Below, in pieces: positions 5,982 through 47,245 of a stretch of 64,000 nucleotides of DNA; within the stretch, counting starts at the first letter, position 1; every line of letters begins with the position of its first letter. The translations under genes were made by a program, and so were the position numbers. This stretch comes from Rosellinia necatrix (taxonomy: Eukaryota > Ascomycota > Sordariomycetes > Xylariales > Xylariaceae). The DNA lies in NCBI GenBank assembly GCA_021209875.1, contig JAGYVD010000004.1, positions 4,687,001 to 4,751,000 of the forward strand, given 5' to 3'. Under the pieces are notes generated by a model. It had not been told where the DNA came from and made no database searches. It was given only the letters and a program-made list of their open reading frames with translations.

Positions 5982-7250
5982 GCTAATTATGGTGGTATGA
6001 TGCTACAAGAAGATTCTGAGGGATTGTGGCTATGATAAGCTTTGTCTTTTGAAGTCGTGCTACTTTGGGAAGCTGGACATTTATGTCTATTATATAATAT
6101 TTCCCATGATGCAGATTACCGTCTTATATAGGATATCACAATCCCGGTCATAATGAGGGCACGGATCCCCGTGTGGCGCAACGGTCAACCACCCTCATCT
6201 GGTCTAGAGGATTGCCCATCCGCTCCTCGTTCTGGACATGGTGTTGAAGTCGACGGTATCTTGGCAACGTTTTTTCACCGATCTCCTACACCGAAATCGC
6301 CACACGTGTGTGCGAACAATATGTGCGTGGTTAAGGGTCGGGATATCTTATCGACTAATGTGTGAGTGACGTGGAATCCCTGCTAATCTGTATAGAGCTT
6401 AGACAGCGGAGTGGTTTATCAGAGCCGTTGGCATTGCGTCGTGCACACATCACGAGAAGCACAAGTGAGGTGTCATCACCGAAGAAATGACGAAGCGAAA
6501 AATTTCGGTGCTTGAAGTATGATTGATGACTGTGAGCCGCTGCATGGTGAGATCTGCGGCCTTCGCAACAATATAAATACATAAAGACCAGGGCTCAAAT
6601 AAATACATCCGGGCTAGTGACATTAACAGAATCATACCAATCTGTCGCCTTTCTCTGTTAGTAGGGGTGTCGTGGTGGGGTCCCCTCGAATTGTGTCAGG
6701 GGGGTTGTTATCGGGCTGTATGCACCAAGGGAGGGAGGGATAGGCCTCAACAAAGTACAGTCTTCGCAGTTTCAAACAGGTTGGTTTCATTATTGGCTAA
6801 TATTATTCTCTAGTACGGGTGATAACTGCCTAAACAAACCCGCCTTGACATGATTATCTCAGGTGCTATATGCTATAGTTCTTTTCTACCCAACTAAAAT
6901 CTCACTAACTCATTATTTTAGTGCGAATCAAACCCGAACGTCTAAAAATAAAGACTAACTAAGTAGACAGTCGCGTTGTTAGTTGGGCCGTGTTTTAGAA
7001 CAGACGCGTTTGCTAGTAGTTTGGGCATAAAATTATCATTCGTGAGACTTATGAATCGCTAATTAATACGCGTAGTTACATACTTTATATACATCAGTCT
7101 ATTCTTAGGAATTCCATTGCCCTCTATCATTTCCTGTGGGCGATGGCCGAGAAATCATTAAGTCCAAAGTCCAAGCTCATTCATCCCTGAACGAAATTGA
7201 GTGACCCTCGCTTATCCACGGGCCTGTGGGAATCGAGATGGTTTTTGTAA
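5982..7250. other. Intergenic between SDR and NRPS
   Basis: About 1.27 kb. It should hold the SDR promoter (SDR reads leftward from 5981) and the NRPS 3' untranslated region. No gene is recognised. A short tRNA-like A box near 6173 has no matching acceptor stem. Confidence 0.5.
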
Positions 7251-16200: not shown

Positions 16201-19200
16201 GCAGTGAAGGCGAGGTACTTGTCTTGATTCACGTGGAGGAGATGACAAATAAAAAGTGGCCCTTGTTGAATGTTTAGATCCCCCTGATCCGACAGGAAGA
16301 GAGCGGCTGCGTCATCCCGGGTTTCACTTCGGCTTTCCCGATAAAGGTAGCTTTGGTTGGTCTCATTCGTGATCCTTTGCTTCCAAGTGCCGCTCAATGT
16401 TTGAGCGAATCTAGCACGAAACATCGAATGATTCTCAACAATCCAGCGAATGGCCCTTTGGATAACATCAGACGGTAGCGACTCGGAAAGACGGAACGAT
16501 ACGCTCTGGTTGAAATGACTGTAGTGGGAGCCAGCCGTGTCAAAGAACATTTTCTGGATTGGCGAGAGCTCAAACAAGACATTTAGCTGTTCTTTCGCTT
16601 GTACGGGGGAAGAATGCCTGTATTCTGTCCGGAGACTCATCCCCGCGATCGTCTTTTCTTGGAAGAGGGCGATAACGGAAGTCTTCAGTCCCTCGGCGGC
16701 ACACTGAGCCACAACTCGCATCGCTTGGATCGAATCTCCTCCAAGTTTCACCCAACTATCATCCACACCAATCGAATTTGCCTCCAGGTTCAATACGCGC
16801 GCCCAGATCTGTTGGAGTGCCCGCTCAATGTCTGTTGATGGTCCACGCTTCGCAACCCCGGTTTCTGCCGAATACTCTTGGATTTGGATTGGGGATAGTG
16901 AAATGCATGCCTCTCGTAACTGGCGGCGATCCAGTTTTCCACTTCTTGATAAGGGAACGCGACGAAGGGGAAGAAATACCTCTGGGACCATATACGACGG
17001 AACAGAGCTGGAAACCTTCGCTTTGGTTTTCTGAGACATCTCACGGAAGGACTGTGTCGGACCGTAGAAGAGATCTTCTGTACTGTCTGCAGCCTGTTCA
17101 CCAACGAGGATGAATGAAGTCAAGAATGGCATCCTTCCGCCATCGGTAGGGGTGATGATGTCGGCAACCACTTCAGTAATGACAGGGAAATGTTTTTTTA
17201 CATGATATTCAACCTCGCCAAGTTCTATGCGCTGCCCACGGAGTTTGACTTGAAGCCCTTTTCTGCCGATAAAACGTAGAGTACCATCGTGATTGTATTG
17301 GACGAGATCTCCAGTCTTGTAAAGACGGCTTTCTGTGCTCTTCGACCTGAAGGCCGTCAGCCAATGAGGTGTTTCGACGTACGCCTCTGAGATTAGTTCC
17401 GGCTCGTTGAGGTACCCTCTTGTCACCACGGCGCCTTCGATTAAAAGTTCGCCGATCACGCCAATGGCGGCCAGTTTCGTGTAATTTGACTTGTCAACAA
17501 TCCACCCATGACCGCCTACCATATGTCCAATTGTACCAAGTCTCCATGCTTTAGTGACCGGGGTAGTGCAGCAGATAGTCGCTTCGGCCGGGCCATATCC
17601 GTTAATCAACCTTACTTTGTCTGCCCACCGATTAGCAATATCGTATGTGAGCGCTTCGCCGCCTAGAATAACCGTCTTCAAGCTAGGTACGTCTGCGGGC
17701 TCAAGTAAGGCAATAGTCGAAGGGGTGAATATGGCCAGATTGATGTGTTGATCGCGAATTACAGAAGCCAGATTGTTCATGCGATCATGCTCAGATACAA
17801 CACATAAGCAACCTCCAAAGGCCAGCCTAGAAAAGAGAGTAGTTAATATATAGCGACGGTCAGGGTGTCGAGGATTGTGTTAGAAGGGGTTAATCTTGGA
17901 AAAATACGCACGTATTAAATATTTCGTAGATACTAGCATCAAACGCGTATGACGAAAAATGAAGGGACCGGGACTCAATATTAAAGTTCATCCTGGGGCC
18001 AGCATGTGTAACACTGGTACTCAAATTGGCGTGTTCCATGACAATCCCTTTTGGTGTACCCGTACTCCCAGACGTGAAAAGGATAAATGCCGCTTGACTA
18101 ACTGCAACCCTAGGAAGTTCTATAGGGAGTGACGGAAGGCTCCGGATGAATTCTGAGGATATGGAAACTTCTCCGTCGAAAAATCCCCGGGTGAGGTCCT
18201 TGTGAGTTCCAGAAACCAGCACAAGTTCCGGGGCGGCTCTCGAAATGATGCTCTCTATACGATCTCGCGGATGGCCGGGATCGATCATCACACACGCACA
18301 ACCTGAACGAAGTATGGCCATGAAGACAACAATTGACCAGGATGACTTCTCAAGGCACACTGCAACTTTTGATTCAGATTGAACACCGAGGGCAAGCAGG
18401 TGCTGCGCCAATCGCTTGGAGAAACCATCCAACTCACGGTAGGTTATGCTACCATCCCAACCGCTGACCGCCTCTGCTTCGGGCTGCTTGAGTGAGTGCT
18501 GTAGTACTAGCTCATGCAATGTCTCTTGAGCTGCACACGGAAGTTGAGCATTCCATACAGCCAGTTGGTTTATATCTTCCTTGCTGATAATTTCGATTTC
18601 CCGAATACGGCTGCTGCGTTTCACAAGAATCTGACGTAAAGCTCCATGGAATTGCTCAACCATCCTCTGTACTTCTTGTTTTGAGAGAACGTTAGGATCG
18701 TAGTTGACGGTCACATCTAGATTGTTTGACCCTTCTCTCATGTGGCATAGTAAAACAAAGGCGTAGCTGGCAAAGTCTTTATAATCCTTGAAGTTCGCTT
18801 CTTTAGCTGTAGCGAGTCCCTCCAGATCCGCCCCGGACATGATACCTGGAGGTTGAATGACCAGCTGCGTTTGGAATTCACAAGCTCTAGCAGTATCCCT
18901 ATTTATTCTGCGTATGCATTGCAATCCGGACTGTAGAAACGGTATCATTGCGACGGTTTGCTGCTGCAGAGCCGAGAGCGAAGCTTCCACTGTATGATCT
19001 AGATTTAGAGATACTCGCACAGGGACCGTCGCTATGGTTGGGCCGGTAACAGAGGCAATTCCCTCGACTGCCGCAGATCTACCATCGGATGTAAGCCCGA
19101 ACACGACGTCGTTTGAATCGGTATAATGCGATAGCATTACCGCCAAAGCAAACTGTATCATTGTCGAAAGAGTGTGTTCTCCCTTGGACGTAGGCAAGTC

Positions 19201-22200
19201 GGTGATGGAATGATAGAGGGATTGGCTAGGATCCGGACTATAGTCAACCTGGGGCAAGAGTGGAAATTGTACTGCGTTGAGGTTACTCATTTGTGATGTC
19301 CAAAATTCTTCCCCGCCCGTTATTTGTACCATCTGATGAATAAAGCGGTTGAATGGTTGAGCTAATAGAGCTTGTCCTTTATATGCTTGTAGGAATTGCT
19401 GCCATATCAGCACAAGAGATTGGCCGTCATATAAGGAATGGTGGATGGTCAGCAGGAACCGATAGCTTTCACTTCCCTTAGCCAGCGGCGCCAGTGATAA
19501 ATGCACTAGCGGTGATCCTAAAGTCATTTCTTTGGCATTGGAATGGCACTGTTGCTCCTCAATAGTTTGATAGACTTCCAGCCCTGGTGCACTCCTCACA
19601 ACAACCTGGAAGAGACCGTCATCACCGCTCGACTGGATTATTCTCGTGCGGAGGATCGAGTTCGCATTCAGAACCTGATTCCATGCATCTTGATAACGTA
19701 TCGGATCCGTCGTATGGGGTATTTCATATTCAAATCTAGCGATGTACATCCCGGGTGTTTTTGTAGAAAGGGCTAGCAAACCCTCCTGTATAGGGGTACA
19801 GGGGTATATATCTTCGATGGAGTTGGGGCTTATCTGACATAAATTTGCCGCGTCTATTTCAATCTGGTGCCGTTTGGCGTCATTTTTGGGCAGAAGAGAG
19901 AGTCGCTCAACTTGGTGTTGAACACTATCGTGGTATTTTTGGGCCTTTTGTGCGAGCGAGGAGATTGTTGGATTCCTTAGAACATCGGCCGTGCTGATTA
20001 GCAATCCCCTGTCCTTCGCTAACGTGACCAGGCGCATTGCAAGGATAGAATCGCCACCCAATTTCATAAAATTATCGGCTATGCTCAAGTTAGTTGCCGG
20101 AATGCTTAATACTTGAGCGAACAGCTCATGTAAAACCTGCTCCTCGTCAGAGACGGGCATCGCCATTATTGTTTCAGCCTGCTTCGTGTATTCATCGGAA
20201 GGCAGCTCTGCTGCAAGTGTGCGAAGAAGTTTGCGATCAAGTTTGCCCGACTTGGAATACGGAAATTGATCGACAGGTATAAACACGGTGGGAACCATAT
20301 AAGGTGGGAGTATAAGCTCAAGTTGGCTGGCTGCTTCAGATGCTAGAGCCTGGAACCGCCCATCAGATATTTTGAACACTTGACGCTTGGGCAGCACAAA
20401 TGCTGTAAGAGCTGACCCTGTGCCTCCTTTTTTTACAATTACTTCGGCGACAGCTTCCTCAGCTCCAGGGAATGCTTTCCCCAAGTAATATTCGACTTCG
20501 CCGAGCTCAATGCGCTGGCCGCGAAGTTTGATCTGAGTGCCCATTCGACCGACATAGCGCAGAGCCCCATGTTCGGTATACTGGACAAGATCCCCCGTCC
20601 GGTACAGGCGACACGTTCCGCTCGGGCGGAATTTGGAGAGCCACGAGGGGCGCTTGTCAGCTGGAATAAAGGATTCGGCACTTCGCTCGGGGTCGTTAAG
20701 ATAACCATGGCCTACTATCGGAGATTCAACAATCAGCTCGCCAACTGTCCCTATTGGTAGTAGACGATTCTGATTGAGAGGGTCGACGACCCAGCATACC
20801 GCGCTGGTAGGGAACCCAACATTATTGGGATCCCTATGGTTACGGACATTGCGATGAGCTGTAGTGAGGATTGCACATTCGGCAGGGCCATAAAGGTTTA
20901 GGATATGAACGTGGGGAGACCACTGTGAAATGACTTCACTGGCTATTGGCTCACCTACCAACGCCAAATATCTTAAGCTAGGAACCTTTGTCGGATCTAG
21001 GATGCGCGCCAGCGATGGTGTCACGGCGGCCCAATTTGCGTCAAGATCATTGATTACCTTGGCTATATTCCCGTCCTTAATATCTGCGTTTCTCGGAACG
21101 CAAACGCATCCACCAGCAAGCAAAGTTAGTAAATTGTCAGCTATACTGACGTCAAACGCGTAGGCTGCGAACTGCAGAACCCGTGATGACGGCTCCAGAT
21201 AGAGGGAAACCCGATTGGCCTGGGCGCTCGTACACCATGAGACGTGAGAATGTGTTGCGCCTTTAGGTGTTCCGGTCGACCCCGAAGTAAATACCGCGTA
21301 CATGGAATTCTCAGGGGACACCAATGGGTTTGGTACTGATGATAGTGTTGTGGGCGATTCCCAAGGCTTCCAGTCAGAACCAATGATGACCGAGCGGGTT
21401 GCGAATTCAGAGGCCAAAAGCCTGTTGCTCTCTGATGCGATTACAAACGGCGCCTTTGAGTCATTATAGATGGAGCGGAGCCGCTGGGCTGGGTGAGAAG
21501 GATCCAGGAGTATGAATGCACCACCGGCTTTAATTACTCCTAGGATTGATACCGTCGTCCAGCGGGACTTTTCAAAGCAGAGGGGTATGAATACTTCAGG
21601 GCCTACACCCTGCTCCATAAGGTAAGCGGCAAGGCTGGAAGACATTTTCTCGATCTCGGCAAATGTGAAGCTCCCATCCCATGCACAAACCGCGGGTGCA
21701 TTTGGGCGCAGCTCCGATTGCTCCCGAATAAGATCATGGGCACAGGCCGTGACTGGGCTAGGTAAGGCTCCATTCCATGCTGACAATTCGGCCCAGTCTT
21801 CTGTACTGACGACATCCATGTCACGGATAATTTGAGCACTCTGCGAATGGTTCAGCTGACCAAAAAGATGCCTCCACAGGTGAAGCATCCGATCAAACTG
21901 GGCTTCATCAATAAGCTTCGGATCCCAAGTAGCGTCAATCTCAATCGACCCTCCAGCCATCTGCCGACATATTAAGTTGATAGCATATGTACTGAATGCA
22001 TCAAGGGCTGATAGGTCTCGAGAGTTGCGGAAGAGCATTGGAGTGGTACCAGCCTCAGGTTGTATTACCAGGATGCTCTGAAACGCACAAGCTGAGGTGG
22101 CTTCGGCGGTCAAGCGGCTGATATACTGCAACCCGGCTTGTTCAAATGGTATCATGGCCACAGAATCCTCCTGTACTTGTCGTAAGGCGTCGCCTATAGT

Positions 22201-25164
22201 GCCGTCGAGTTGCAGTTTAAGACGGTAGGGGATTGTCGATATTGTAGGCCCTGTCATTTCATCGATGCCCAAGACCGAAGAAGCCCCTCGTCCAGCGACG
22301 GTGAGGCCAAATACAGTATCCGGGCTCTCCGTATATAACGATATTAGAATGCTCCAGGCCAATTTGAGTCTGTTGGGGACGCTGAATTCATGCTTCTCTG
22401 GGGAACCAACTTGAATAGTGAAAGTCTTCCTAGCAGCTGGATTAGGTGCATGGGTTGTAGGGGGCATTGAGGGGAATGCGGCAGCATGCAAATCCACGAA
22501 GTACTCTTTCCAAAAGTTCTCGGCACCCGTCTTCGACTCTGATATATAGCTGATAAAGTTGTTGAATGGCCGATAAGGCATATTACTAGCCCCGTCGTAT
22601 GCTGCTTGAACTTGCTGGAGGAGCAACGGCATCGCCCAACCATCACTCAGAGCATGATGTATGGCAAATGTAAACACATAACAACTATCTTGATGGCCCG
22701 AACGACGAAGGGAAAAACATGTCAGGTCTTTACCAATTCCCCAGTCATTCCATATATTTGTCTCTGTGGCTGTCGACTCAATGTCCGTTTCTAGCTTCAA
22801 AGGTAGAGTCTTGCGGACGACGACCTGGTACATAGCGCCAGTCGCTGACTGGATAAAACGTGTTCGAAGGATGGGGTTCATGTCCACCGTCATATCCCAG
22901 GCCCGCTGGAATTTGTGGATGTCCAAATCGACAGGGAGCTTGTACTCGAAAGAGACGGCGTACGCGCCAGGCCTCGTCGCGGTAAGAGATATCAGACCCT
23001 CTTGTAGCGGAGTAGATGGGTAGATGTCCTCAATGTCATGCCTGTCTTGGAGCTGACAAATCTGCACAGCCCAGTCGATGAGTGACTCTCGATCCTCTGT
23101 CTGGGCGATTAAAGAAAATGGCAAGATCGGGGTTACAGCCTCCAAGAATGCTGAGCTCAAAAAGGCCGCCATTTCTTCGAGACTCCTACGCCGAAAAACA
23201 TCACGCACAGGAAGTGTGAGCTGCTGCCGTCGAGCTGCGGCTGACAGTTTCATGGCATGGATTGAAGTTCCACCAAGCTCGACAAAGTTGTCATCCAGCC
23301 CAATATCGTTATCGGGGATCAGCAAGACACCTGCCCAGAGCTTTTGAACAGCCTTTTCCATAAGAGTAGACGGCGCACGTTTGGCCCTCGCCGTCTGGGT
23401 TGTGCCGTATGACTGAAGTTGGCGCTGGGTAAGTGCGGTAGCCAAAGACCGCAGTTTACGCCTATCGCTCTTACCACTTGGCATCAGGGGCATATAACTA
23501 ATAGGCAGAAATACGCTTGGCACCATCCATTCTGGCATGATCTTCCGCAGCTGCTGCTGGGCTGTTTGAGTCTGTGTAATCAAATCCCAAGCTGACTTGA
23601 GGAGCTGGGGCTCTTGAGTACCAACACTTTCTGAAACCAACTGGGTGTTGGGTAAGATAAACGCAATCAGGGTCTCCAAGTCATCGACATTAACAACATC
23701 AACGACGAGATGGCGGGCATCAGGGAGAAGCTTACGCAAGTTGTACTCAACTTCAGCCACTTCAAGCCTCTGACCGCGGAACTTTTTTTGGTTATCTTTC
23801 CGTCCAACATAACGGATCGAGCCATCCATGGGATCAAGAGAGCAGAGATCGCCGGTTTTATATAACTTAACACCCTCGGTGATAGTATCGGATGGATACT
23901 TGTACCAGCAGGGTGGATCAATGAAAGCCTCCGCTGTTTTCGTAATATCGTTGATATATCCCCTCCCAATCGCGGGCCCGTCAAGGACTAGCTCACCAAC
24001 ATTGCCAGCTACCTCTAGCCGGTTGTGATCATCTGGATTAACTATCCAGCAAGCTACACCCGTGCCAAAGCCTAGGTTTGATGCATCGATGTGATCGGTG
24101 TCGTTAATACACAATCTCCTGACGAGATTGATAACCGACGCTTCGCTGACACCATATGCAACGAATAGGTCCAGGTGCGGCGCCCACTTCCGCACGTCAT
24201 CCTCGTCGATCGCCTCGCCTCCAAGACCTAGTGTTTGAAGCATAGGGAGATCGGCTGGATCGATGACTCGGGCCAGGGATGGAGTTAGGATGGCAAAATT
24301 TGGAGAAAGTCGATGGGCTTCACCCCTGAGGTCGCTGATTCGCCCTTCGTCAGAAGGAATGCAAACACACGCGCCAACAATCAATGTTGTCAACATTTCA
24401 GTGAGACATAAATCGAACGCATATGAGGCAAATTGCAGCACTCGCGACTTGGCACTCATATTGATCGCCTCCGCATGCGCTATTGCACTGCTGCAGAACG
24501 CGCGATGTTCGATCGCAACAGCTTTAGGCCGCCCAGTTGAGCCAGAGGTGAAAATAGCATACGCAACGTGGCTGGGGTTGACCTCTGCCGTTTTCGGAGC
24601 TGGCTGGCGCGCGTCATAGGCGTCGATAATGAAGACCTCCGAAGCCAGTTGGCTCGCAATCGAGGCGGTCTGGTTTGACGCGACAACTCTTGTTGCATCA
24701 ATAACGTTGCACATGTCCCTCAGTCGAGCTATAGGGTGAGATGGATCCAGAAGAACAAAAGCACCGCCAGCCTTCAAAATCCCGAGAATCGCGACAGGCA
24801 CCCATTTTGATTTTTCGGCACAGACCGGCACATACACCTCCGGTCCGACACCATGGTGTGCTAATTGTGCAGCAAAAGAGTTTGAGAGTCTTTCGAGCTC
24901 CGCGTAAGTGTATTGCCCGTCCCAGGCGTAGATTGCTACCGCCTCAGGCTGAGAATGGGCGCGATCCTGGATAATTTCATGTATACAGTTGTTGTTGCGA
25001 ATCGAAGGTTGCAGAGGCGCGCACGGCATTTGTTGAAGCGTTTTAGTGTTGCTATTGACGGCTTTATCTCCTGCTTTCATCGGCAATATATCAAGGGTGA
25101 TCTTGATACCTGGCCGATCTCCACCGCCGTCAATGCCTATATTTTGGTCGTGAAGTATCGTCAT
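7251..25164 (-). CDS. Five-module nonribosomal peptide synthetase
   Basis: Three exons, 25164-17912, 17826-14112 and 14045-7251, give about 5920 residues. Introns of 85 and 66 bp join in phase and restore continuous A3 and C3 domains. Order, with landmark residues: A1 (about 60-575), T1 (Ser 634), C1 (HHALSDG, 836), A2 (about 1150-1650), T2 (Ser 1706), C2 (HHSLYDG, 1908), A3 (about 2210-2720), T3 (GGDS, Ser 2783), E3 (HHLVVDIISW, 2961), C3 (NHAIIDG, about 3429), A4, T4 (GADS, Ser 4315), C4 (HHALYDG, 4542), A5, T5 (GDS, Ser 5430), C5 (THAQYDGGS, about 5630). There is no starter C domain, no N-methylation domain, no thioesterase and no reductase. In fungal synthetases a terminal C-like domain usually cyclises the chain, so a cyclic pentapeptide with a D-residue at position 3 is inferred. 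Predicted binding-pocket residues: A1 DLTLGGAVI, A2 DVAVAVLIL, A3 DAYFIGGIC, A4 DIYLVGAVF, A5 DAYFLGGIC. I cannot assign amino acids from these. Confidence 0.95.
14046..14111 (-). other. NRPS intron 2 (66 bp)
   Basis: Donor GTAAAT and acceptor CAATAG. It joins T-I-N-T-E to Y-D-I-A-L-N-I in phase 0, restoring the C-terminal part of condensation domain C3. Confidence 0.9.
17827..17911 (-). other. NRPS intron 1 (85 bp)
   Basis: Donor GTGCGT and acceptor TCTAG, interrupting adenylation domain A3 just after the F-D-A-S-I-Y-E-I-F motif. Splicing gives F-N-T-L-A-F-G-G-C-L-C, which matches the other A domains of the protein. Confidence 0.9.
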
Positions 25165-27805
25165 ATTCAGATCCTTCTGCAGTATCTAGAAAATAATATA
25201 TTGGACTAAAATAGGGTATGGCAAATAGAACCCTTACTGATAAGGTTGGAAAGTGCGCAATACCCATTAACATATTATGAAGGGCATGCCGTCTTATGTG
25301 ATATTAAAAAGTTGTTGGTCAAATACCAAACTAACTCTCGCCGGTTGACCCCTTCTCTTCGTATACACAACTGAAGCCACCCGCTTGCCACGCACAACCA
25401 AAAAAATAACAAGACCAAAGTTCAAGACCACTGCCCTCGGAAGTGTACATAACCGAGGAAACCGAAGACTAACCAACCATGGGTAAACCCCAATAATCGG
25501 GTTGATATGCAGTTACGTAACAAAGGATGCCATCCAATGTCCCATCTGGATTGCAAGCAATAGTGCCGATGACATCACAAGCGCCAGAATATATTAATTG
25601 TGTCCTCGCATTAGCGCAATATACAGGGTCCTGAGCATGCCACACCAAGATCAGCCCTTCGTACATGCTACTATGTATAAACACGTGTCAGGATAACCCC
25701 ACACTAGTGTATAATATAATATCATGAATCGATGGCCAGCGGGTAACTCTTGCCCAAATGAGGGTAGCGCTTTCTGTCCGTTTCCTTCTTTCTCGGGACC
25801 TGTTATGAATACTCCGATTCGCCGCCACACGATACACACAGGACCCCTGTCAAGGTTAGAAACCAAGTATGTACTTTGGTTTAGTTTAGTGCATCCGGCA
25901 TAGCAAAGAGTGGTATAGTTGCGCAACCAGTGTGATAGGTCTTCCTCAGCACTCATTTACATTAGTCTTGTGTGGGCATGTCAAGCTAGAGGAATGGTAA
26001 GATGACTCGGTTGCTCGAATAACGTGGTGTATATTCGAGTTTCGTCATTGCCCTTATACCTTTCCACCCCCGGCTATCATTTTCGTTTCTCAGGATCCTA
26101 TACTGCCTGCAGTTTCAAATGACTTAGTGCCCTCTCGCAAATATAGCATTTTGTAAATCTGCCGTACCAACCTACCCGTTCACTCGATGAAGTTCCGGCC
26201 TAACAAGGGTAAAAGCTAGCCTACTGAATATCTAAAACTACTTCACCACTCAAGACGTCCGACATGGTCATTCAACAATCAGGGGTGCTAAATCTGAGGG
26301 AGTTTATTATCTATGGCATTGAAAATACTCCTAAGGCAATGTCTTCGCGTTTACTTTGTGGTCATTAGACATGAAATGGCATTCAACTCACATTTCCATA
26401 CTTACTCCATTTTACCCGAGGGGCGATCTCTCTTGACAAAACAAGCGCTATTTATGAAATTTCGAGAACTATAGCATGTCGTCAGTGGCGGGTTGTGACG
26501 TTCGCTGTTGGCGGAGCCTAAGCCTTTTTTTTTTTTTTTTGGGTTCTCTCATATGTCAAAATTAAAAGCAACCCGAAATAAGTTCACGCTCCACCAGAAA
26601 TACATGCTGCTATTTACACTGCGCGGTGTGCCCTGTTGGTGATGTAGATCACGACTCTTTACCCCTCACCTTCCAGGCCCCCTTCCACCCCGTTTTCTTG
26701 GCTACCTTTTTCCTTCCCTGACACCCTTCTGGCCCATGTAACTATTTGATGGATTATCTGCAGGGGAAAAAAGCAAACATGCGTGCCAAGCCAATCCTTA
26801 CAGGGGTTCTGTAAGGAACTTTCCTGAGCGACACAGGATATTTGACGTCTCCCGGGGATACATAGAGATAAGGTTAATTATTCGCCCAGCTTTTTGTAAG
26901 TACATTTGGGACTAGTTTTTTAAGGCACAGTAACTAATTAGCCGAAACCGGCTAGACCAACTTGCTTGATGCCTGGATACTATTCCAGTTGCAGACGCCT
27001 CGACAGTTCATCATGGGTTCATGGATTCACGATTAGCCACTCGGAAAGCTTGGTAGTCAATAGCGGCAGTCGCTACCAACTAAGTTAAAGTTACATCCCG
27101 GAAGGAAACACGATTCGGTTGCCATTTTACTCTCCACGTAGTTACAAGCGATTTATATGCGCCAGGGTTTAGCACTTACGCTAGCATTGTACCCAAACCC
27201 TTGGTTCTGATCCCATTGGAGTTCTCGTATATGCTTTTTTTTTTTTTTTTTTAACAAGCCAAGGTTCCTAACATTCACCTAGTATAGTCGTATCAAGTGT
27301 GTTCTTGTCCTCTACTCATCACTTCGTACACAGTGTTGAAAACGAGGGCTGCACACCGCTCATGTAACCCTTCCAAGCCCATCCTAGACTCTGTGTTGGT
27401 ACAGAGAGACCTTGCTAAAATCATTCTGATCACGTTTATACCGGTGTAAAGTAGTTCTAAGATTGTTGACTGACAGCGGAAGTAACCCCCGTGTATCTTC
27501 TGCGAAACACCCACAACTTTCACCTTTGTTGCTTTGTTGGAGCAAGTATCGAAAATATTTGTCTTGAACGCCTTTGGCGTCCGGATAGGGCGAAATTCTA
27601 TTTCCTGAAATGATATTTTGCTCTTTTATAGGCTTCGAGGATAACAGGAACCCATTGCCTCTTCTACTATTTAAGTCTATTCATCACCTATCGATTACTA
27701 TAACAAGCAAACAGGACCCGACTAAATAAACCTTGGGGAGTGTCTTCTTGATACCGGGCAATAATACTTTATTCGGCACACGCGTCGAATTCCACGCATC
27801 ATTTC
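25165..27805. promoter_or_regulatory. Divergent intergenic region between NRPS and methyltransferase
   Basis: A 2.64-kb stretch separates the two divergent start codons, so it must carry both promoters. Poly-T tracts lie near 26525-26540 and 27235-27252. A TATTTAAG element at about 27667 lies some 140 bp before the methyltransferase start. No gene is recognised. Regulator binding sites cannot be named from sequence alone. Confidence 0.5.
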
Positions 27806-37495: not shown

Positions 37496-39175
37496 CTACA
37501 CAAAAGGAACATAGTACTTCATCGCGTTCTTCGGGTCGAATTGGCGTTTGAGCGCCTTCAACTTCTGCAGTCTCCAATCCTCCCAGCCGTAGACGGCCTC
37601 GAGAGGCTCATCTCCATTTGCATAGTTGACGTATGCGCGGAGATGTTCCGGATCGTCGCTTCCCTCGAGCAAGAAGCCTCGCAACGTCTTCCCGAACTCC
37701 TCCGCAATGGGGTCGATGGTGGCGTTTGGCTTGTATTGCACATAGGAAGTGACCAAGATCTCGTCGTCTCGGTGCGGGAAGGCAGTGGACGCTGCATCGA
37801 CCGCCTTCACGGCTTGGGTGGAGTAGCCCTCAAGCAGGAAGAACGACCCGGCAATTTCGGGGACATTGCGGAATGTCTCGTCAATGTGATCGTATACCTT
37901 CCGCACAGCGGCTACGTTGTACGATTTCAACCCGATCGGGTAGCGAAGAGAGGTTAGCCCATAGGCACAGCCGGCGCCGTCCTTGTCCTGGAACGTGACG
38001 GTTGCGAGATCATGTAGATCGCCCTCGCCAGCTTGAACCATTAAGGGACCAAGATCATGAAGCGGCTTAGCATATTCGCGTGCTGTCTCGGTAGGCCCAT
38101 CGTAGACGATGGCGAACCAGAGAATTGGCTATGTGGTTCTTTAGCAGGGAAGTATTTTGGGGTACTGATGTCACGGAGGACTTACGTGGTCAGGGTCAAT
38201 CTCAGCGACTTTCACGATGTATCCCCAATGCGTTGCCTCTGCTGGCTGATCCTTGAGCATACTATTCGCCAGCTCATAGAGGGCCTCGAGTTTATCCTGA
38301 GAGTAGATAAAAACCTCGTATGACCACTGGTTTTCCTTGGTATCGTAGACACGATATTCCCATTCCGTCACCAAGCCAAAGTTGTGCCCTGCACCTCTAA
38401 TGGCCCAGAAGAGGTCAGGGTGCGACTTGTCGGATACGGTGATAAGGTCACCATTGGGGAGCACAAGCCGAGCAGAAATGACTTGATCCGCGGCCAGCCC
38501 AAGTTGGCCTTGATACCACCCATGTCCTCCCCCCATTATCACTGCGGATAGGCCGACACATTCACAGATACCAGTTACTGTGGTTTCGTCAGCGACCAAT
38601 GAGATGCCTTCTCACGTCAGGTTTTCAAGCTTACCCGCCCTCTTCCCCACGGCCGCAAGCTCGTCGATAACGTGCTTGCCAGTGGCACCGCCGCCTATGG
38701 TGGCACTTTTGCCATCCTTGCTAAGCTTCACCTTGTTTAGTTTGCGGAAGTCAACTTGGATCGCGCTCTGGGCGTCCGCGAGAGACTCCGTTGCACCATG
38801 GCCACCCGATCTGGCGACGAACGGGATGTTGAACTTGTCGGCGATGCGGACCTAATATCGTTTAGTAGGCGGGTCTGTCGGGGGCTCGCGCCCAATTGGT
38901 GCATAACTCACGATCTGCTGGATATCTTTCTCGGTTGTGGCCTCGACAACGACAGAGATATCGGGTGCGAGAAATTCCCTCCATCGGCTTGTCAGGTTGG
39001 CGAATTGGCAATTGTCCTTGGTGACAATGGCCGCTCCCGACGATAGCAGGGGTCGTAGCTCAGCGAGGGCAGAGATCTTGTCCGTCATGTTTGCTTGTAG
39101 GTCTGCGGCAAGTACGGGGACGGGAGATAGGAAGTTGAGGAGGGAAAAAGCGCTAACAACGCCATTGAACAACAT
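37496..39175 (-). CDS. Secreted berberine-bridge-enzyme-like FAD oxidase
   Basis: Four exons, 39175-38912, 38851-38635, 38577-38186 and 38128-37496, give 501 residues. Introns of 60, 57 and 57 bp are GT-AG and in phase. The start is the first ATG, which gives a clear signal peptide (M-L-F-N-G-V-V-S-A-F then a hydrophobic run ending V-L-A-A-D). The FAD-binding PCMH domain shows A-R-S-G-G-H-G, whose His is the usual covalent flavin site. G-I-C-E-C-V-G-L then M-G-G-G-H-G-W carries Cys residues where the second covalent link sits in bicovalent family members. The end reads F-D-P-K-N-A-M-K-Y-Y-V-P-F, the BBE C-terminal substrate domain. Such enzymes oxidise alcohols, amines or peptidyl side chains with O2 and act in the secretory pathway or outside. 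It lies 1.85 kb from a UstYa-like gene on the same strand, which suggests a role in the RiPP-like unit; it could also be unrelated. Confidence 0.9.
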
Positions 39176-41027
39176 GATTGCGAGGAAGAATCCAGCGCCG
39201 CTGGAGCTAAAGGGCGCACTTTGATTCGGCAAGAGCACAAGTATGATGGATGCTACGGAAGATGCAGCAGTAGTGTTGCAGTCACATCAGACACCCAGCA
39301 TGACTCAAACAAATCAAGCATTCGAGTCCTACGTCGGGCGGGAGGGCCATGGTAGATAACAGTCGCATTTGGAGGCGGCACAGCACAACATCTAGGCATC
39401 GGCCCAACTGGCCAACAGCCCTGAAAGGGGCTGCTGAGCAATCTGAGCGATGCGAAACAGCTGTTTCCCGTCGCTTCGAGCGTAGAGAAGCTATCGAAGC
39501 CGCGCAGAACCAGTTGGAGGATTTGAAAACATCCCTGCACCCACATGGTAGGAGGCGGGACAGGAGGGGGGAGACCGGAGGGGGACTGATCCTCCGGGGA
39601 TGGGAAAAAGCGCGCTTGGCACTCCACTTGAGGGGGATGGCACGTTAGACGTTCAATGCAAGGCCGTTCATGACCACCATTTCCCTCCGCATCCGCCGAC
39701 GACCTGATGTCCATGGCCACATTTCCAACCCTGGCCGCCTGAGGCTCATTTCCTACCCATCCCTCGCGGACTATCTCCTTGCCCCTCCCACCTCGTGTTT
39801 CGCTCAGCGATCTCTCGCTCGCTCACGTTTTCCGTCCCTGTTCGATAGATCGATCGGGAACGAGCGGGGGAGGAGCATGGGAAAGCAGCATATCCTAGCG
39901 TCCTCTTACGCGTGCTGGACCGCGGGTCAATGAACAGATCCCCCCCCCCAGCACGCATTGCGCGGGGGGGTTAGGGGTCTCAGCGCGCGTCAGCAGGACT
40001 TTGGGCAGGAGATGTAGAGTGCCAGTCAGTGTAGTGTATAAGCTGTGGTTCCGGACTACTGCACCGCACAGAGACAAGTCAAAGATCCTGACTATCATGG
40101 CGACTCGTGGGTGCAGGACAGAAAGAAAAAAAGAAAGGGGAGTGGTGTGAGGGGTCTTTGCGCAAGCATGTCTAACCACTTACATGCATAGTAAATAGTT
40201 ACATCGCTATAAAACGTGCATATGTAGGATCTACCACTCGCATTATTGTATACAAGATTCAAGGGCAGGACCAAATGCATAGCTAACATCATGTGACTCA
40301 GCTATCATCATCATCATGACTGACGCGCGTAGTTCTGCGCGTAAGTCTGCGCGCCGGTTGAAAGCTTTATCCCAAATGAGTTAGGGTCTACGTTAGTCTA
40401 AGTGTGTTAGTGTGCTGTATGTACGCACACATATGCGTACTTAGGTAATGGTCCTGTGCGTATATCCCTCAGGGGGAACTGCCTCTGAGTCCGTTTTGGC
40501 ATTTCAATCTCCGATATGGCCCATAATACTACCTACGATACACTAGCAGCATCTCACTACACTACTGTAAGAACTCGAATGCCTGTACCTAGACAAGGAT
40601 GGCGTAAATTTGGCGGGGAAATAATTAGCAAGTCAGTATACTATCTATTTAGTCGTTGGCAATGTACGACCTCCTCTTGATAAAGACACGGATATCTACT
40701 ATTATAGCTCAGTAATTACCCTAGTTGCCCTCGATGCATGCTCAGTAAGTAATCGGGACATTTAGACACCACGAGGGATCCCTTGAAAGCAGGATGCCAT
40801 GCGAAACGGGCATAGGTATAGGGTATAAGGTATAAGGTATGAGGGAGGCCTTATCACCTATTAGTGCTTGCTCGGCAAAGTCGACGCCGAAATAGTACCG
40901 GGAGTGCGCAACCAATTTGAAGATGAGTACATACTTAGTAATCGTAGTCGATGGTCTCCGGGTCGATAAGTCATCTCGTATGACTTATTCGCGACAGCTC
41001 TCCCTCCAAGTCTAATGACATGTTATG
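39176..41027. other. Intergenic upstream of the BBE-like gene
   Basis: About 1.85 kb containing the BBE-like promoter. A GC-richer part (39250-39960) has open frames on both strands without family features, so I do not call them. A C9-type run lies at about 39940-39949 and G-runs at 39963-39970. Confidence 0.45.
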
Positions 41028-41921
41028 CTATGCATTGCCGACATGCGCCTGGCCATGGCTCAGTCCGTGTGCTAGAAACCCGGTAGCATTGAATACCCTC
41101 CATTTCTCAACGTAAGCCTTCACTGCCTCGAAATCCCGACATTGTCTGGGGAAGCCGCTGCCTAGGAACCCATTTGGGTCATCTTCTCCCGGCTCCACTG
41201 TGCTGTCTGCCGCGCATGTGATGCTCTGCTCGAGATAGTCAAAGCAATGGGAGGCGTGGATGGTGCGGTTCTTGCCAAAATCAAACTCCTGGAGCTCTGC
41301 CGTTTGCGCGTAGTATGCGCGCCTTACAACGTACAAGCAATGTAGTTGATGGAAGACCGTTGGAATAGAAATCTTGGGAGCGAGGTCGTGGTCTCTGAAG
41401 TAACCTAGCCCGTCTTAATAGTAGTTCGTTAGCAGTGTCCCCGCCAGTTGGCATAATCCAAGACCGGATCATCCCGTCTAGTGTGTAGGAGACTCACTTG
41501 GTACGAGCGCGTCCCAGATTGGCTCTGATTCTTCTCCTGCGCCATCACCTTGTGGTGGCTCCTTTGAGAAGGGGGAGGAGAATACAAATTGCCCTTCAAT
41601 CTGCGGAACTGGGATGCGTGGTGCTGTCGCCCCGTTGACTCTGCCCTCTTGGTGGGAGGTACGCGCTGAGTTGAAGAGAATCCCCGCTACAAAACCACCC
41701 GCCGCCGTCAGTATGAAGCACGCTACTATCGCCAAGTATGTGAGCTTCTTAGAGGAAAGCAACCACCTTGGGGCGTCTGGCCGCACGGGGCTCTGATCTT
41801 CCTCATCTTTCGCCAGCCGCTGATATGTGGTTTTAGTCTGAATATATTCCATCATAGCGGGGGATATGTGTATCGCCTTTCCTGGGCTCGTTTGAACCGA
41901 GAAGGAGGGTTCCCAATTCAT
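41028..41921 (-). CDS. UstYa-like (DUF3328) oxidase 1
   Basis: Two exons, 41921-41498 and 41413-41028, give 269 residues. The donor is GTGAGT. I chose the TTAAG acceptor at 41414 because it yields L-V-P-N-G-L-G-Y-F, the family's conserved P-x-G-x-G segment; a later TAG acceptor at about 41406 would lose it. One membrane helix lies at about residues 59-83 after a cytoplasmic N-terminus. The two hallmark motifs are H-Q-L-H-C (163-167) and H-A-S-H-C (194-198), with Y-L-E-Q-S-I-T-C-A-A-D following, as in UstYa/UstYb. UstYa proteins are proposed metal-dependent oxidases that form macrocyclic links, hydroxylate or halogenate peptides in dikaritin, cyclochlorotine and victorin-type pathways. It is 1.06 kb from the precursor gene, transcribed away from it, so they share a divergent promoter region. 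Confidence 0.92.
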
Positions 41922-42980: not shown

Positions 42981-43523
42981 ATGAAGTCTGCCATCATCTT
43001 CGCTATCTTTGGCCTCTCCGCCCTGACAAGCGCCCTACCTACCGGTAAAGTCAACGCCTTTGCTGGAATTGTGGGACTCATACTAATAGTCGTCTTAGGG
43101 TCGCCTGAGATTGATGTTGCGGATGCCTTCAAGCGCTCCGAGTCCGACATCGATGTCGCAGACGCTTTCCGGCGCTCTGAATCTGACATCGATGTTGCCG
43201 ATGCTTTCAAGCGTGCTGAATCCGATATCGATGTCGCGGACGCCTTCAAGCGTGCCGAATCTGACATTGACGTTGCAGACGCTTTCAAGCGTGCTGAGTC
43301 CGACATCGACGTTGCAGATGCTTTCAAGCGCTCTGAATCCGATATTGATGTCGCTGATGCTTTCAAGCGCTCTGAGTCTGATATTGATGTCGCAGACGCC
43401 TTCAAGCGTGCCGAGTCCGACATTGATGTTGCGGACGCATTCAAGCGTGCCGAATCCGACATCGATGTTGCGGATGCTTTTAAGAGAGGGGAGTCGGAGG
43501 TTGACGTTGCCGATGCATTTTAA
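42981..43523 (+). CDS. Kex2-processed repeat precursor peptide (dikaritin-like RiPP candidate)
   Basis: Two exons, 42981-43044 and 43099-43523, give 162 residues. A signal peptide is visible (M-K-S-A-I-I-F-A-I-F then small residues, cut likely after T-S-A). The rest is 11 cassettes of exactly 13 residues (39 bp). Each ends D-V-A-D-A-F; the first ten are followed by K-R (nine) or R-R (one, copy 2), and the last ends at the stop codon. The linker is [S/A]-E-S-D-I in copies 2-10, S-P-E-I in copy 1 and G-E-S-E-V in copy 11. D-V-A-D-A-F is therefore the invariant part and the likely core, with Kex2 cutting after KR and a carboxypeptidase removing the basic pair. Signal peptide, repeated core, dibasic spacing and two flanking UstYa genes are the defining layout of dikaritin-type fungal RiPPs. 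There is no Tyr or Trp in the array. The alternative, a secreted repeat (repellent or pheromone-like) peptide, is less likely given the neighbours. Confidence 0.88.
   Translation: MKSAIIFAIFGLSALTSALPTGKVNAFAGIVGLILIVVLGSPEIDVADAFKRSESDIDVADAFRRSESDIDVADAFKRAESDIDVADAFKRAESDIDVADAFKRAESDIDVADAFKRSESDIDVADAFKRSESDIDVADAFKRAESDIDVADAFKRAESDIDVADAFKRGESEVDVADAF
43045..43098 (+). other. 54-bp in-frame intron in the precursor gene
   Basis: Donor GTAAAG, ACTAATA branch site, TTAG acceptor. Removal joins L-P-T-G to S-P-E-I-D-V. The intron has no stop and a length divisible by three, so an unspliced message stays open and would insert 18 mostly hydrophobic residues. Confidence 0.75.
43101..43520 (+). 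repeat. 11 x 39-bp tandem coding repeat
   Basis: The first core codon of copy 1 is at 43113 and that of copy 11 at 43503, exactly ten periods of 39 bp with no indel. Copies differ mainly at third codon positions. Confidence 0.97.
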
Positions 43524-43988: not shown

Positions 43989-44837
43989 TTAGAGATGGTC
44001 TTGCATGGATTCTTCTGGAAGTCCCTCTAAAAGCTCTTCGGTCGGGACATAGTCATCCGTCACAACATATCCACTATCGGGGGGACAATGCTTAAACCTA
44101 TCCAACTTAGACGGACCCTCTGCGTCAGGATTGTCGGGGCGCTTGTAACAGGCAGTGTGCCGCTTCGCAAACGCCTCTAGTTGTTCCCAACTACGGCATT
44201 GGCGGTGCTGGTGCAGCCCACTGACGACTTCGACCCGTCGGTCGGTGGCTCGTGGGGTGTCATCCGCATCACAGATGATCTGTCTGCGTAGTGCATCGAG
44301 ACAATGACTGATATGATGCCAAGAACGTGTTTGCTCGACGCCCCTGCGGTACTCGCTCATAGAGATGTAGACGATTTTCAAACAGTGTAGATTGTGGAAG
44401 CCGTGCAGGATATAGATCCCTCTGGACTGGTCCCAGGGGAATCGCTGTGCTCTTCGGAGATCGTGTTGATCAACCCAATCATCGGAAAGAGCAACAACCG
44501 CTGAGTCGACGTTGATATTGTACCATAGCTCGTCTTGAAGAGTGTCGTTGTCCGTGGAGTATGGGGTTACTATGACGTACGGCTCAGAGCGGACACGCTC
44601 GAGGTGGGCATACTTGGTTGGCGGCTCAGATCGGGGGGAGGGTCGAAAATAGAGCGTTGTGAGGAGGACATTGAATACAATAGATACTGAGAGTAGGACT
44701 AATAAGATCCTGCGGACATGACTTTCGCTAGCGGATCGAGAGAATTGTTGAAGAAGAGACTTTTCACTCCGCTTGCCTCCCTCATCATCCTCTTCGAGCA
44801 ACCCGCGGTGCTCAATGCTATCGACGGAGCCGGTCAT
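43989..44837 (-). CDS. UstYa-like (DUF3328) oxidase 2
   Basis: Single exon, 282 residues, ATG at 44837. A cytoplasmic acidic/basic N-terminus is followed by one membrane helix (about residues 44-64). The hallmark motifs are H-N-L-H-C (148-152) and H-I-S-H-C (175-179), then I-C-D-A-D-D-T-P, the usual family continuation. G-I-Y-I-L-H-G-F just ahead of the first motif corresponds to the conserved segment in which UstYa proteins often have a short beta strand. It is more diverged from the consensus than UstYa-like 1: the usual P-x-G-x-G stretch is replaced by D-Q-H-D-L-R-R-A-Q-R-F-P-W. It converges on the precursor, with stops 0.47 kb apart. Two different UstYa homologues around one precursor is typical, since members often act in pairs or in sequence. 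Confidence 0.92.
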   Translation of the reverse strand: MTGSVDSIEHRGLLEEDDEGGKRSEKSLLQQFSRSASESHVRRILLVLLSVSIVFNVLLTTLYFRPSPRSEPPTKYAHLERVRSEPYVIVTPYSTDNDTLQDELWYNINVDSAVVALSDDWVDQHDLRRAQRFPWDQSRGIYILHGFHNLHCLKIVYISMSEYRRGVEQTRSWHHISHCLDALRRQIICDADDTPRATDRRVEVVSGLHQHRQCRSWEQLEAFAKRHTACYKRPDNPDAEGPSKLDRFKHCPPDSGYVVTDDYVPTEELLEGLPEESMQDHL

Positions 44838-45921
44838 GATGGATTTTGGTCGAGAAGTTACAATACAAGTTTCAACGACAAAACGGGGATAGAGCCCGTA
44901 ATGGTTGTAGGAGTTTTGAGCACTGGTATCTCGTCATAGCAAAAGGCGGGCTTTGATATCGTGGGGGGTGCGGAGCCGCCCCTCACCCCCCCGGAAAATA
45001 ACCCTGACTGCCAACACCATCAAAATCTGCCCATCACATACAGCTAGATGCGTCTTCAGAGGCAAGAAGTCTTGAGCATGACAAGTGGAGCGGCCCAAAT
45101 ACACCAGGGACCAAGAATCAAGTCAAGGTAGTCAGTGTTTAACATATTAGGTAACCCTTGTTACTAAGAGTAACATTTTATGTCTCCGTCACATCCTCAT
45201 GGTTGACCCTAAAGAGAGACGCCGTTAGAGTTAACCTGTTTCTTAGTACACTAGTGAGTTTCTAGTTAGTAACGCCTTGAGGTTACATTCAAAAGTGGTT
45301 ACACCCGTCTAGCTAAGGAACTCCTGGGTATAGTATAATATGGTAGCAAGTATTGTTTTTAGTAGTAGCAATGGCAAAACCCGGAATTTACGTGACTTGC
45401 ATGTCACCAAGCCCCCAACCGAGTCTGCCGGCATAATATGATGCGCAAGCCCTGACATGTAAGTACCATACTTAGACGGGGTAGATAATATTTCCAGCTA
45501 ACCCCAAATCATCAAGAACACCGCACGTATCAGTCATGGGTAGCGCGCTGACAATCCCGGCCTGGAGTTGCATCTGAAGGAGGCGGGGGTTCCGACGGAT
45601 CGCACATCGGTGTCATTCGCTACGCTCCCAGCTCCCCTCGCTCATACGGAAACGCAGTTTGCGACATTGGGTCTAGATCACCCTCTATATGGCGCCCGAT
45701 TGATTGAAATCTGCAGTGACGTTCGCCCTCTTGTCGGCATTAGTGGTTCTATCCACTCATCGTTCAACACTTTATTCGCGCTCTTCCTATCTTGTACTGC
45801 TCGCATTCAGCAACTTCCTGGCGCAGCTGCGAGACCGCTGTCTCTGGTGGCTCGGCCCAAACCTGCATAATCACTGTCAATTCTCCACGGATGAATCTGA
45901 AGTGAAGGGACAACAGACAAG
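44838..45921. promoter_or_regulatory. Divergent intergenic region, UstYa-like 2 / membrane protein
   Basis: About 1.08 kb with promoters for both neighbours. Open frames at 45568-45970 have no family features and overlap what is probably a 5' untranslated region. Confidence 0.5.
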
Positions 45922-47245
45922 ATGCCGGTGGTCGCACACGCTAATGACCGCAATGGCATCATTGTCATGACAGTCTTGTTCACAATACTCATCACTTCTG
46001 CAGTTGGGCTCCGTTTCTATGCAAGACATATGACTAGAGCTGGCTACAGCTGGGATGATTGGACTGCATTGGCCGCTTTGGTAAGACTTTCGATACTAGT
46101 CTATCTCCCGAGCGCGGGATAATTCGTAGCGCTGTTGCTAATGCATGTATCTCTAGCTGTTTACCTTGGGTCTTAATGGGATTTTCTTAGGCGCGACCAT
46201 CGAGGGCGCTATCACAGGGCATTCACCCGTCGAAGATGGCTGGCCCGTACCGATTCCGTTGGAGATAGTGGCGCAGAAGTACAAGTACGCATTTCAGATA
46301 ACGGAAAAGCTCTGCTTCGGCTTAATCAAAATATCACTCTTGCTGCTCTGGAAGCGGCTATTCGGGTCTTCCAAGCGCTTCAGAACTCTATGCTGGGTTA
46401 TGATCACGCTCACAGTTCTATGGACGCTCGCATTTGCTCTTACTACGGTATTCCAATGTGGCCTCCGATGGGAATTGAATTGGTCACACATCGGTGTTTT
46501 CCTTACACAATGCATAGAGAGCCTTGATGTCCTTACTGTATTCGCCACTACCGACATCCTTTCCGATTTAATCATCATTGCCATGCCGGTGCCTTTGATC
46601 TGGCGGCTTCACTTGCCTACGAGAAAGAAGATAGCTCTCAATAGCGTCTTCCTTATCGGTTTTTTGTATGTTCATCCGCTATTCTCTATCATTTCGTGCC
46701 TTTTTTTGCGACGGCCTAAGCATCCAACTCGTGCCGATGTTTATGCTAACATGCCCCTTAGCACTATCGGAGCCGGTATAGCACGAACATATATGTACCT
46801 CGTTACTTCATACGATAAAGAGAGCAACCCCGATTTCATTGCAGACTTTACGCTCTGCATTCTATGGTCGGAGATTGAGGCTAATGTGGCCATGTTGGTA
46901 TCTTGCCTGCCGGTTTTGAGCCCGGTAATCGGGAAATTTAGCAACTGGCTCAACTCCTCTCTACGCTCTACCCCCCTAGGAAAGTGGCTTCCCTTGCCTA
47001 CTCCGACGCAGAAACACAGCCATGCGACGAGCGAGGATTTAGAGTTATCAGTCTCGTCAAAACTTAGAAAAAAGCAGCTATCGCGCTTGTCGTCCGACAA
47101 GCAGATGCTGTGGCAAGAGGGACAGGGCATCGTCACTACGGCGGGTTATTCTAATACAGGAGAGATGCCAAACAGCGATCGCAGGATTCTTGCGCGTACT
47201 GACATTTCGACGACGTACGAAGCACGAGACTCAGATTCACTATGA
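45922..47245 (+). CDS. PTH11/rhodopsin-like fungal integral membrane protein
   Basis: Three exons, 45922-46080, 46157-46665 and 46762-47245, give 383 residues. Intron 1 (76 bp) and intron 2 (96 bp, GTATGT donor, GCTAAC branch site, CTTAG acceptor) are in phase; intron 2 has no stop and a multiple-of-three length. The N-terminus shows R-F-Y-A-R-H-M then Y-S-W-D-D-W-T, the conserved R-x-x-x-R / D-D-W features of the fungal rhodopsin-domain (SAT20-type) membrane family. Several hydrophobic helices follow, then A-R-T-Y-M-Y-L and W-S-E-I-E-A-N-V-A-M, also conserved. The last 100 residues are a hydrophilic Ser/Thr/Lys-rich tail. These proteins are GPCR-like and common near secondary-metabolite genes; ligand and role are unknown. 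It may be cluster-associated or only adjacent. Confidence 0.88.

What the first reader, a model, noticed from the sequence alone, without database searches (positions are those of the whole stretch)
42981..43523. Undescribed repeat RiPP precursor with eleven identical D-V-A-D-A-F cores
Seen: signal peptide, then 11 cassettes of 13 residues with exact 39-bp period, separated by KR/RR, the last core ending at the stop codon. Known: dikaritin-type precursors (ustiloxin, asperipin, epichloecyclin, victorin families) share this layout with UstYa partners. Inferred: this locus encodes a peptide whose core I do not match to any product I know, with eleven copies per translation.
Basis: partly seen in the sequence, partly recalled or inferred. 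Interest (0 to 1): 0.9.

Follow-up and report, generated by a model that had tools for sequence, protein, structure and literature searches.

The report
Conserved fungal repeat peptide with UstYa
A fungal gene encodes a secreted protein that would be cut into eleven copies of the same small peptide, next to two enzymes of a family that chemically modifies such peptides; nearly the same peptide recurs in related fungi, so it probably makes a real but still unknown natural product.

Summary
Window 42981-43523 (+) encodes a signal-like start and eleven exact DVADAF copies at a 13-residue period, separated by KR (nine) or RR (one), the last ending at the stop codon. The eleven core DNA sequences all differ, but only at third codon positions.

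Two UstYa (DUF3328) genes flank it, each with two HxxHC motifs. Fourteen relatives of the precursor carry nearly the same core. In four, precursor and a homolog of the downstream UstYa have neighbouring locus tags; in a fifth they share a contig length. The genome is probably Rosellinia necatrix.

Best reading: a dikaritin-type RiPP precursor, cut by Kex2 and oxidised by UstYa. The core has no Tyr; a C-terminal Phe (56 of 57) and Val/Ile five places from the end (57 of 57) are its most constant features, so I infer a victorin-like Phe-to-Val/Ile link. No product has been seen.

A new, unusually conserved member of a known kind. No held main text prints the core; supplements were not readable.

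The parts
42981..43044 (+). Precursor exon 1: signal-like start (about residues 1-18 to 20) and ALPTG
   Evidence: hydropathy; similar starts in relatives
43045..43098 (+). Probable 54-bp intron, frame kept
   Evidence: GTAAAG...TACTAATAG...TTAG; spliced junction resembles Hypomontagnella relative P0131; no transcript seen
43099..43523 (+). Precursor exon 2: eleven cassettes with core DVADAF, 13-residue period, 9 KR and 1 RR separators, stop codon directly after the last core
43989..44837 (-). UstYa-B, single exon, 282 aa, motifs HNLHC (148-152) and HISHC (175-179)
   Evidence: PF11807, E 2.2e-21 for the open frame; motifs; model; homologs
41028..41921 (-). UstYa-A, two exons with probable intron 41414-41497, motifs HQLHC and HASHC
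   Evidence: PF11807, E 5.3e-21 for the spliced protein; intron the best of four frame-keeping options by UstYa-like junction; motifs
45901..47245 (+). Neighbouring fungal rhodopsin-domain protein, in at least two exons; membership in the cluster untested
   Evidence: PF20684, E 3.2e-35 for the large open frame; upstream piece below its cut-off
37496..39286 (-). Neighbouring FAD-linked (berberine bridge type) oxidase in pieces; membership in the cluster untested
   Evidence: PF08031 and PF01565 just over cut-off in two of three open frames

Best explanation
A dikaritin-type RiPP precursor gene. Inferred path: the signal peptide sends the protein into the secretory pathway; Kex2 cuts after each KR/RR and a carboxypeptidase removes the basic residues, leaving cassettes that end in ...IDVADAF; the variable acidic spacer is trimmed; the lumen-facing copper enzymes UstYa-A and UstYa-B oxidise the core. 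The core has no Tyr, so the likely link runs from the C-terminal Phe to a beta-branched side chain (Val/Ile five places from the end, or the Ile just before the core), as in victorin. Shown: gene anatomy, constraint on the core, flanking UstYa genes, pairing with UstYa in relatives. Inferred: cleavage, trimming, modification, and the site of the link (about 0.4 for the link itself).
For: Eleven identical cores kept while their DNA diverged at third positions only. Two flanking UstYa genes, each with both HxxHC motifs, where about 0.0016 UstYa genes would lie within 2 kb of a random point (20 genes in 49.1 Mb; UstYa genes cluster, so the second is not independent). Pairing of precursor and UstYa-B homolog: neighbouring tags in 4 of 14 relatives and equal contig length in 1 more. 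Core positions over 57 cassettes: D 54, V 53 + I 4, A 51, D 55, A 50, F 56. 10 of 14 relatives end exactly in ADAF. UstYa-B model: one long N-terminal helix and two helices that carry the HxxHC motifs, as described for the copper enzyme CctR (PMC12435403, abstract and part 1 of 3). Two other UstYa loci of this genome also carry a Kex2-type repeat precursor.
Against: No product, transcript or cleavage data. No Tyr, which 65.6% of repeats beside DUF3328 genes contain (PMC7329392). No tyrosinase or S41 peptidase match in the window. For 9 of 14 relatives no UstYa-B from the same genome is among the 120 of 146 rows listed. Pairing of UstYa-A, the FAD oxidase and the rhodopsin-domain gene in relatives was not tested. 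Four of 14 relatives do not end in ADAF as deposited. No solved structure resembles the UstYa-B model (0 of 27 fold matches at E 0.001 or better).
Confidence: 0.8

Rival explanations
1. A Kex2-processed repeat protein that releases unmodified linear peptides, for instance a secreted signal; the UstYa genes are neighbours without a role in it.
For: Most such precursors (78%) have no DUF3328 gene near them, and linear ones exist (PMC7329392, abstract and section 7). The core lacks Tyr.
Against: UstYa on both sides and repeated pairing in other genomes. Annotated pheromone precursors almost never have UstYa neighbours (PMC7329392 abstract), and Pfam finds no pheromone family here.
Confidence: 0.12
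2. The UstYa genes tailor the product of the NRPS at 7-25 kb and the repeat gene is unrelated.
For: UstYa-type enzymes also act in NRPS and polyketide pathways (PMC12048977, passages; PMC12435403). An NRPS is in the window, with a methyltransferase and an MFS-type protein between.
Against: UstYa-B homologs stay next to this precursor in other genomes; UstYa-B lies 0.5 kb from it and about 19 kb from the NRPS. UstYa-A alone could still belong to the NRPS; its relatives were not searched.
Confidence: 0.06
3. A chance or low-complexity repeat without a coding role.
For: It is a tandem repeat, and other frames over it are open too.
Against: Core columns vary only at third positions of this frame; relatives carry the same peptide, most with a similar signal-like start.
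Confidence: 0.01

Closest known systems
Victorin (dikaritin group)
   Same: Multi-core Kex2-type precursor; ring closed from a C-terminal Phe to an internal aliphatic residue (PMC9233826, passages). Here too the core ends in Phe and has constant Val/Ile.
   Different: Here no product is known, so the link is inferred. Victorin is chlorinated and a host-selective plant toxin; no halogenase or activity was tested here.
Ustiloxin, phomopsin and asperipin-2a (dikaritins)
   Same: Signal peptide, repeated cores with Kex2 sites, UstYa genes near by (PMC10512285 and PMC7329392, passages and sections).
   Different: Their rings use Tyr; this core has none. Ustiloxin and phomopsin need a tyrosinase; none matches in the window.
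Epichloecyclins
   Same: Repeat precursor, probable Kex2 processing.
   Different: Nonapeptides linked between Ile and Tyr; this core is shorter and Tyr-free.
[quoted passage not shown]
   Same: Fits the description; 22% of 7878 have a DUF3328 gene near by, most often the next gene (PMC7329392).
   Different: Most types are confined to one genus; this one is seen in nine named genera, Rosellinia included by inference.

Membership tests
Dikaritin | Precursor with signal peptide and repeated cores separated by Kex2 sites | tested here: met
   signal by hydropathy only
Dikaritin | UstYa homolog(s) with two HxxHC motifs beside the precursor (class-defining by the definition quoted in PMC12048977) | tested here: met
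   definition
Dikaritin | UstYa-dependent modified peptide | not testable with these tools
   needs mutants and mass spectrometry
Dikaritin, older five-gene definition quoted in PMC12048977 | Tyrosinase in the cluster | tested here: not met
   no PF00264 match in the window; known dikaritin clusters can lack some of the five
Dikaritin, older five-gene definition quoted in PMC12048977 | Methyltransferase, and transporter or peptidase | tested here: inconclusive
   A Methyltransf_33 protein and an MFS-type protein just under its cut-off lie 11-15 kb off, nearer the NRPS; no S41 peptidase
Ustiloxin/phomopsin subgroup | Tyr in the core as the ring partner | tested here: not met
   No Tyr in DVADAF or its spacers
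Victorin-type linkage | Core ends in Phe | tested here: met
   Phe last in 56 of 57 counted cassettes
Victorin-type linkage | Phe-to-aliphatic side-chain link in the product | not testable with these tools
   No product known
Alpha-type pheromone precursor | Pheromone family match | tested here: not met
   No pheromone model in Pfam at E 0.01; the three Pfam matches there are repeat-driven

The most novel reading that the evidence does not exclude
A nearly invariant RiPP spread through Xylariomycetidae whose ring is closed from a C-terminal Phe to a beta-branched Val/Ile by copper UstYa enzymes without a tyrosinase, kept as a shared signal or defence rather than as a fast-changing toxin, and expanded to eleven copies in this fungus.
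Probability: 0.3. Interest if true: 0.65.

Novelty: new member of a known kind. Interest (0 to 1): 0.5.

Why it matters
A 2022 review counted only five reported dikaritins against at least 838 predicted precursor types (PMC10512285, passages). Most repeat types are confined to one genus (PMC7329392). This one keeps almost the same six residues over nine named genera, while the paired UstYa-B homologs have drifted to 62-75% identity with this one, which argues for a kept function. A Tyr-free core makes it a clean test of whether UstYa enzymes close rings from Phe beyond victorin, and the predicted masses are simple to look for.

Tried and rejected
Chance repeat: rejected by the codon pattern and by relatives. 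Pheromone: no pheromone family, and UstYa neighbours. Pfam matches of the precursor itself (Hao_C, ROKNT, Lysostaphin_N): set aside as repeat-driven; the first two pass their cut-offs but have no stretch that passes alone, the third is far below its cut-off. Solved structures: for the R. necatrix homolog P0005 one match by sequence, E 0.2, an unrelated protein; for the model of the window's UstYa-B 0 of 27 fold matches at E 0.001 or better. Tyrosinase and S41 peptidase: 22 and 1 matches in the genome, none in the window. In R. necatrix papers, 'RiPP' and 'ribosomally' do not occur in the main text of PMC10796067, nor 'RiPP', 'DUF3328', 'ustiloxin' or 'Kex2' in that of PMC6933693.

Full report
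WHAT IS THERE. The finding is real. The gene starts at 42981 and stops at 43523 on the + strand. A probable 54-bp intron (43045-43098) with usual ends and a TACTAATAG branch-like site keeps the frame, which is why the unspliced reading is also open; the spliced protein has 162 residues. The spliced junction ALPTG-SPEIDVADAF resembles ALPTG-SAEIDVADAF in the Hypomontagnella relative. The protein is a hydrophobic, signal-like start and eleven cassettes with exactly 13 residues between cores. The core DVADAF is the same in all eleven, the spacer is not; nine separators are KR, one is RR, and the last core ends at the stop codon.

CONSTRAINT. The eleven core DNA sequences are all different, and the variable core columns are 0, 0 and 6 of 6 at codon positions 1, 2 and 3. 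Over the nine inner 13-codon units 217 of 245 pairwise codon differences are synonymous, against 236 of 1053 possible single changes. Pairs are not independent, so this describes and does not test, but the direction is plain: the copies diverged while the peptide was kept.

ORGANISM. The window lies in a 49.1-Mb fungal genome, G000:C8:4687001-4751000. Its UstYa-B is 98% identical to a Rosellinia necatrix protein. Total size and longest contig (7.16 Mb) match the published R. necatrix R18 assembly, 49.1 and 7.1 Mb (PMC10796067, section 6 read), although that has 11 contigs and this one 12. I take it as probably R. necatrix (Xylariales), by inference.

NEIGHBOURS. UstYa-A (41028-41921, -) and UstYa-B (43989-44837, -) lie 1,059 bp upstream and 465 bp downstream. 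Both match PF11807 and both have two HxxHC motifs; the two share 34% identity over 100 columns. The genome gave 28 UstYa exon matches, a lower bound by the tool's own note, which I merged into 20 genes at 14 loci; about 0.0016 UstYa genes are then expected within 2 kb of a random point. UstYa genes cluster, so the second neighbour is not independent. A repeat-precursor scan of 10 kb at each of the 14 loci found clear Kex2-type repeats at three: this one, L031 and L039; two more gave only Arg-rich frames and nine gave nothing. No tyrosinase or S41 peptidase match lies in the window. Other neighbours are an FAD oxidase (37.5-39.3 kb), a rhodopsin-domain protein (45.9-47.2 kb) and, farther off, an MFS-type protein just under its cut-off, a methyltransferase and an NRPS. 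I did not scan every small frame of the window, so small unlisted genes are possible.

RELATIVES. Two protein searches, each of which scored about 8000 candidates only, gave 14 distinct relatives: 4 at E 0.001 or better, then 14 rows at E 10 or better with a profile that was itself built from those 4 and the window. The weakest, P0134 (E 8.2), is accepted only for its motif. Named hosts are Monosporascus, Xylaria (two species), Parahypoxylon, Nemania, Anthostomella, Apiospora (two records), Xylariaceae sp. FL0594, Hypomontagnella and Daldinia; three have no name. With Rosellinia that makes nine named genera. Of those looked up, Monosporascus, Anthostomella, Hypomontagnella and Rosellinia are Xylariales and Apiospora is Amphisphaeriales, all Xylariomycetidae. 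The 15 proteins split into 62 segments, 11 in the window and 51 in relatives; 5 of the relatives' segments do not end in Phe or Tyr and were dropped, one each in P0002, P0004, P0125, P0133 and P0134. Over the other 57 the core positions read D 54, V 53 + I 4, A 51, D 55, A 50, F 56, and the residue before the core is I 49 + V 6. The window has 11 cassettes; the relatives have 1 to 5 counted ones. Ten of 14 relatives end exactly in ADAF; P0002, P0125, P0133 and P0134, as deposited, do not. A few cassettes depart more, such as MDVGEGF in P0003 and GVNDGY in P0004, and P0133 has no exact DVADAF.

PAIRING. A search with UstYa-B gave 146 proteins at E 1e-10 or better, 120 of them listed. Four genomes show neighbouring tags of precursor and UstYa-B homolog: Parahypoxylon AAE478_007621/007620, Anthostomella pinea Uu.00g010970/010980 (taken as neighbours because the numbers appear to run in tens), Hypomontagnella monticulosa 285636/285637, Daldinia sp. 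FL1419 333861/333860; the contig lengths agree as well. In Xylariaceae sp. FL0594 both are on a contig of length 483,780 but with distant tags. For the other 9 of 14 no UstYa-B from the same genome is among the listed rows; the database is clustered and 26 rows were not shown. These five homologs are 62-75% identical to the window's UstYa-B over 79-100% of it. A tree of 57 sequences (the window and 56 of the 120 listed) spreads the five over several parts, with 17 of 54 inner branches well supported and 19 weak; the FL0594 protein groups with Conoideocrella and Stachybotrys, so transfer or paralogy is possible. Homologs also occur in Aspergillus, Penicillium and lichens; no precursor was found for them, and they were not searched for separately.

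MECHANISM. The UstYa-B model (mean pLDDT 76.9, pTM 0.64) has a disordered start, one long helix (37-64) and two helices (145-164, 173-189) that carry HNLHC and HISHC. This matches the description of CctR, a membrane-bound binuclear copper hydroxylase of the family (PMC12435403, abstract and first of three parts read). Ustiloxins and phomopsins link Tyr to Ile, but victorin links a C-terminal Phe to an internal Leu (PMC9233826, passages). Here the most constant features are the C-terminal Phe (56 of 57) and a beta-branched residue five places from the end (57 of 57). I therefore infer a Phe-to-Val/Ile link, with about 0.4 confidence; hydroxylation or desaturation by the UstYa pair is the alternative. 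Whether the mature peptide is the hexamer or includes the Ile before it is open. Repeat number raised ustiloxin output and transcript level (PMC10512285, passages), which may be why this fungus has eleven copies; that is a guess.

NOVELTY. The kind is known: 22% of 7878 repeat precursors have a DUF3328 gene near by (PMC7329392, abstract and sections 6 and 7 read). Lack of Tyr is not rare: 65.6% of repeats beside DUF3328 genes contain it, so about a third do not. What stands out is a nearly fixed core over nine genera, where most types sit in one. Two searches of held main texts for the core and its pieces found nothing. Prior notice is possible: a survey reported an ustiloxin-like RiPP cluster in all its Hypomontagnella species (PMC8403587, passages), which may or may not be this one, and one type of the 2020 survey spans Monosporascus and Hypoxylon among 19 genera, though that type contains Tyr. 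PMC6339444 was seen only as a listing.

A LEAD. The R. necatrix infection transcriptome reports enrichment of mycotoxin biosynthesis, GO:0043386 (PMC6933693, passages). From memory, that term is assigned to UstYa-family proteins, so UstYa genes may be part of that signal; not checked.

Noticed in passing
L031 (G000:C1:4179900-4189899), frame from about base 6475 +: A second repeat precursor beside a UstYa gene in the same genome: seven cassettes around PWPLYVAKDAKR. This one contains Tyr and Trp.
   Followed up: partly
L039 (G000:C2:398900-408899), minus strand: A third repeat precursor beside a UstYa gene, with cassettes around DAITFRYPIF and KR/RR sites.
   Followed up: partly
window 7251-25185, minus strand: A large multi-module NRPS in long open frames, with a Methyltransf_33 protein (27.7-29.0 kb) and an MFS-type protein (30.9-32.0 kb) beyond it; product not examined.
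   Followed up: no
P0069, record named Golovinomyces magnicellulatus: A UstYa-B homolog on a 1,012-base contig under a powdery mildew name, 54-59% identical to a mostly Xylariales family; perhaps contamination of that assembly.
   Followed up: no
G000:C7:5604441-5607219: Several UstYa matches close together; two of four rows have stop codons inside, either introns read through or decayed copies. No repeat precursor was found in the 10 kb around them.
   Followed up: no
window 42981-43523: Eleven cassettes here against 1 to 5 counted in relatives, and the best tandem-repeat period is three units, 117 bp, which suggests growth by blocks of three.
   Followed up: no
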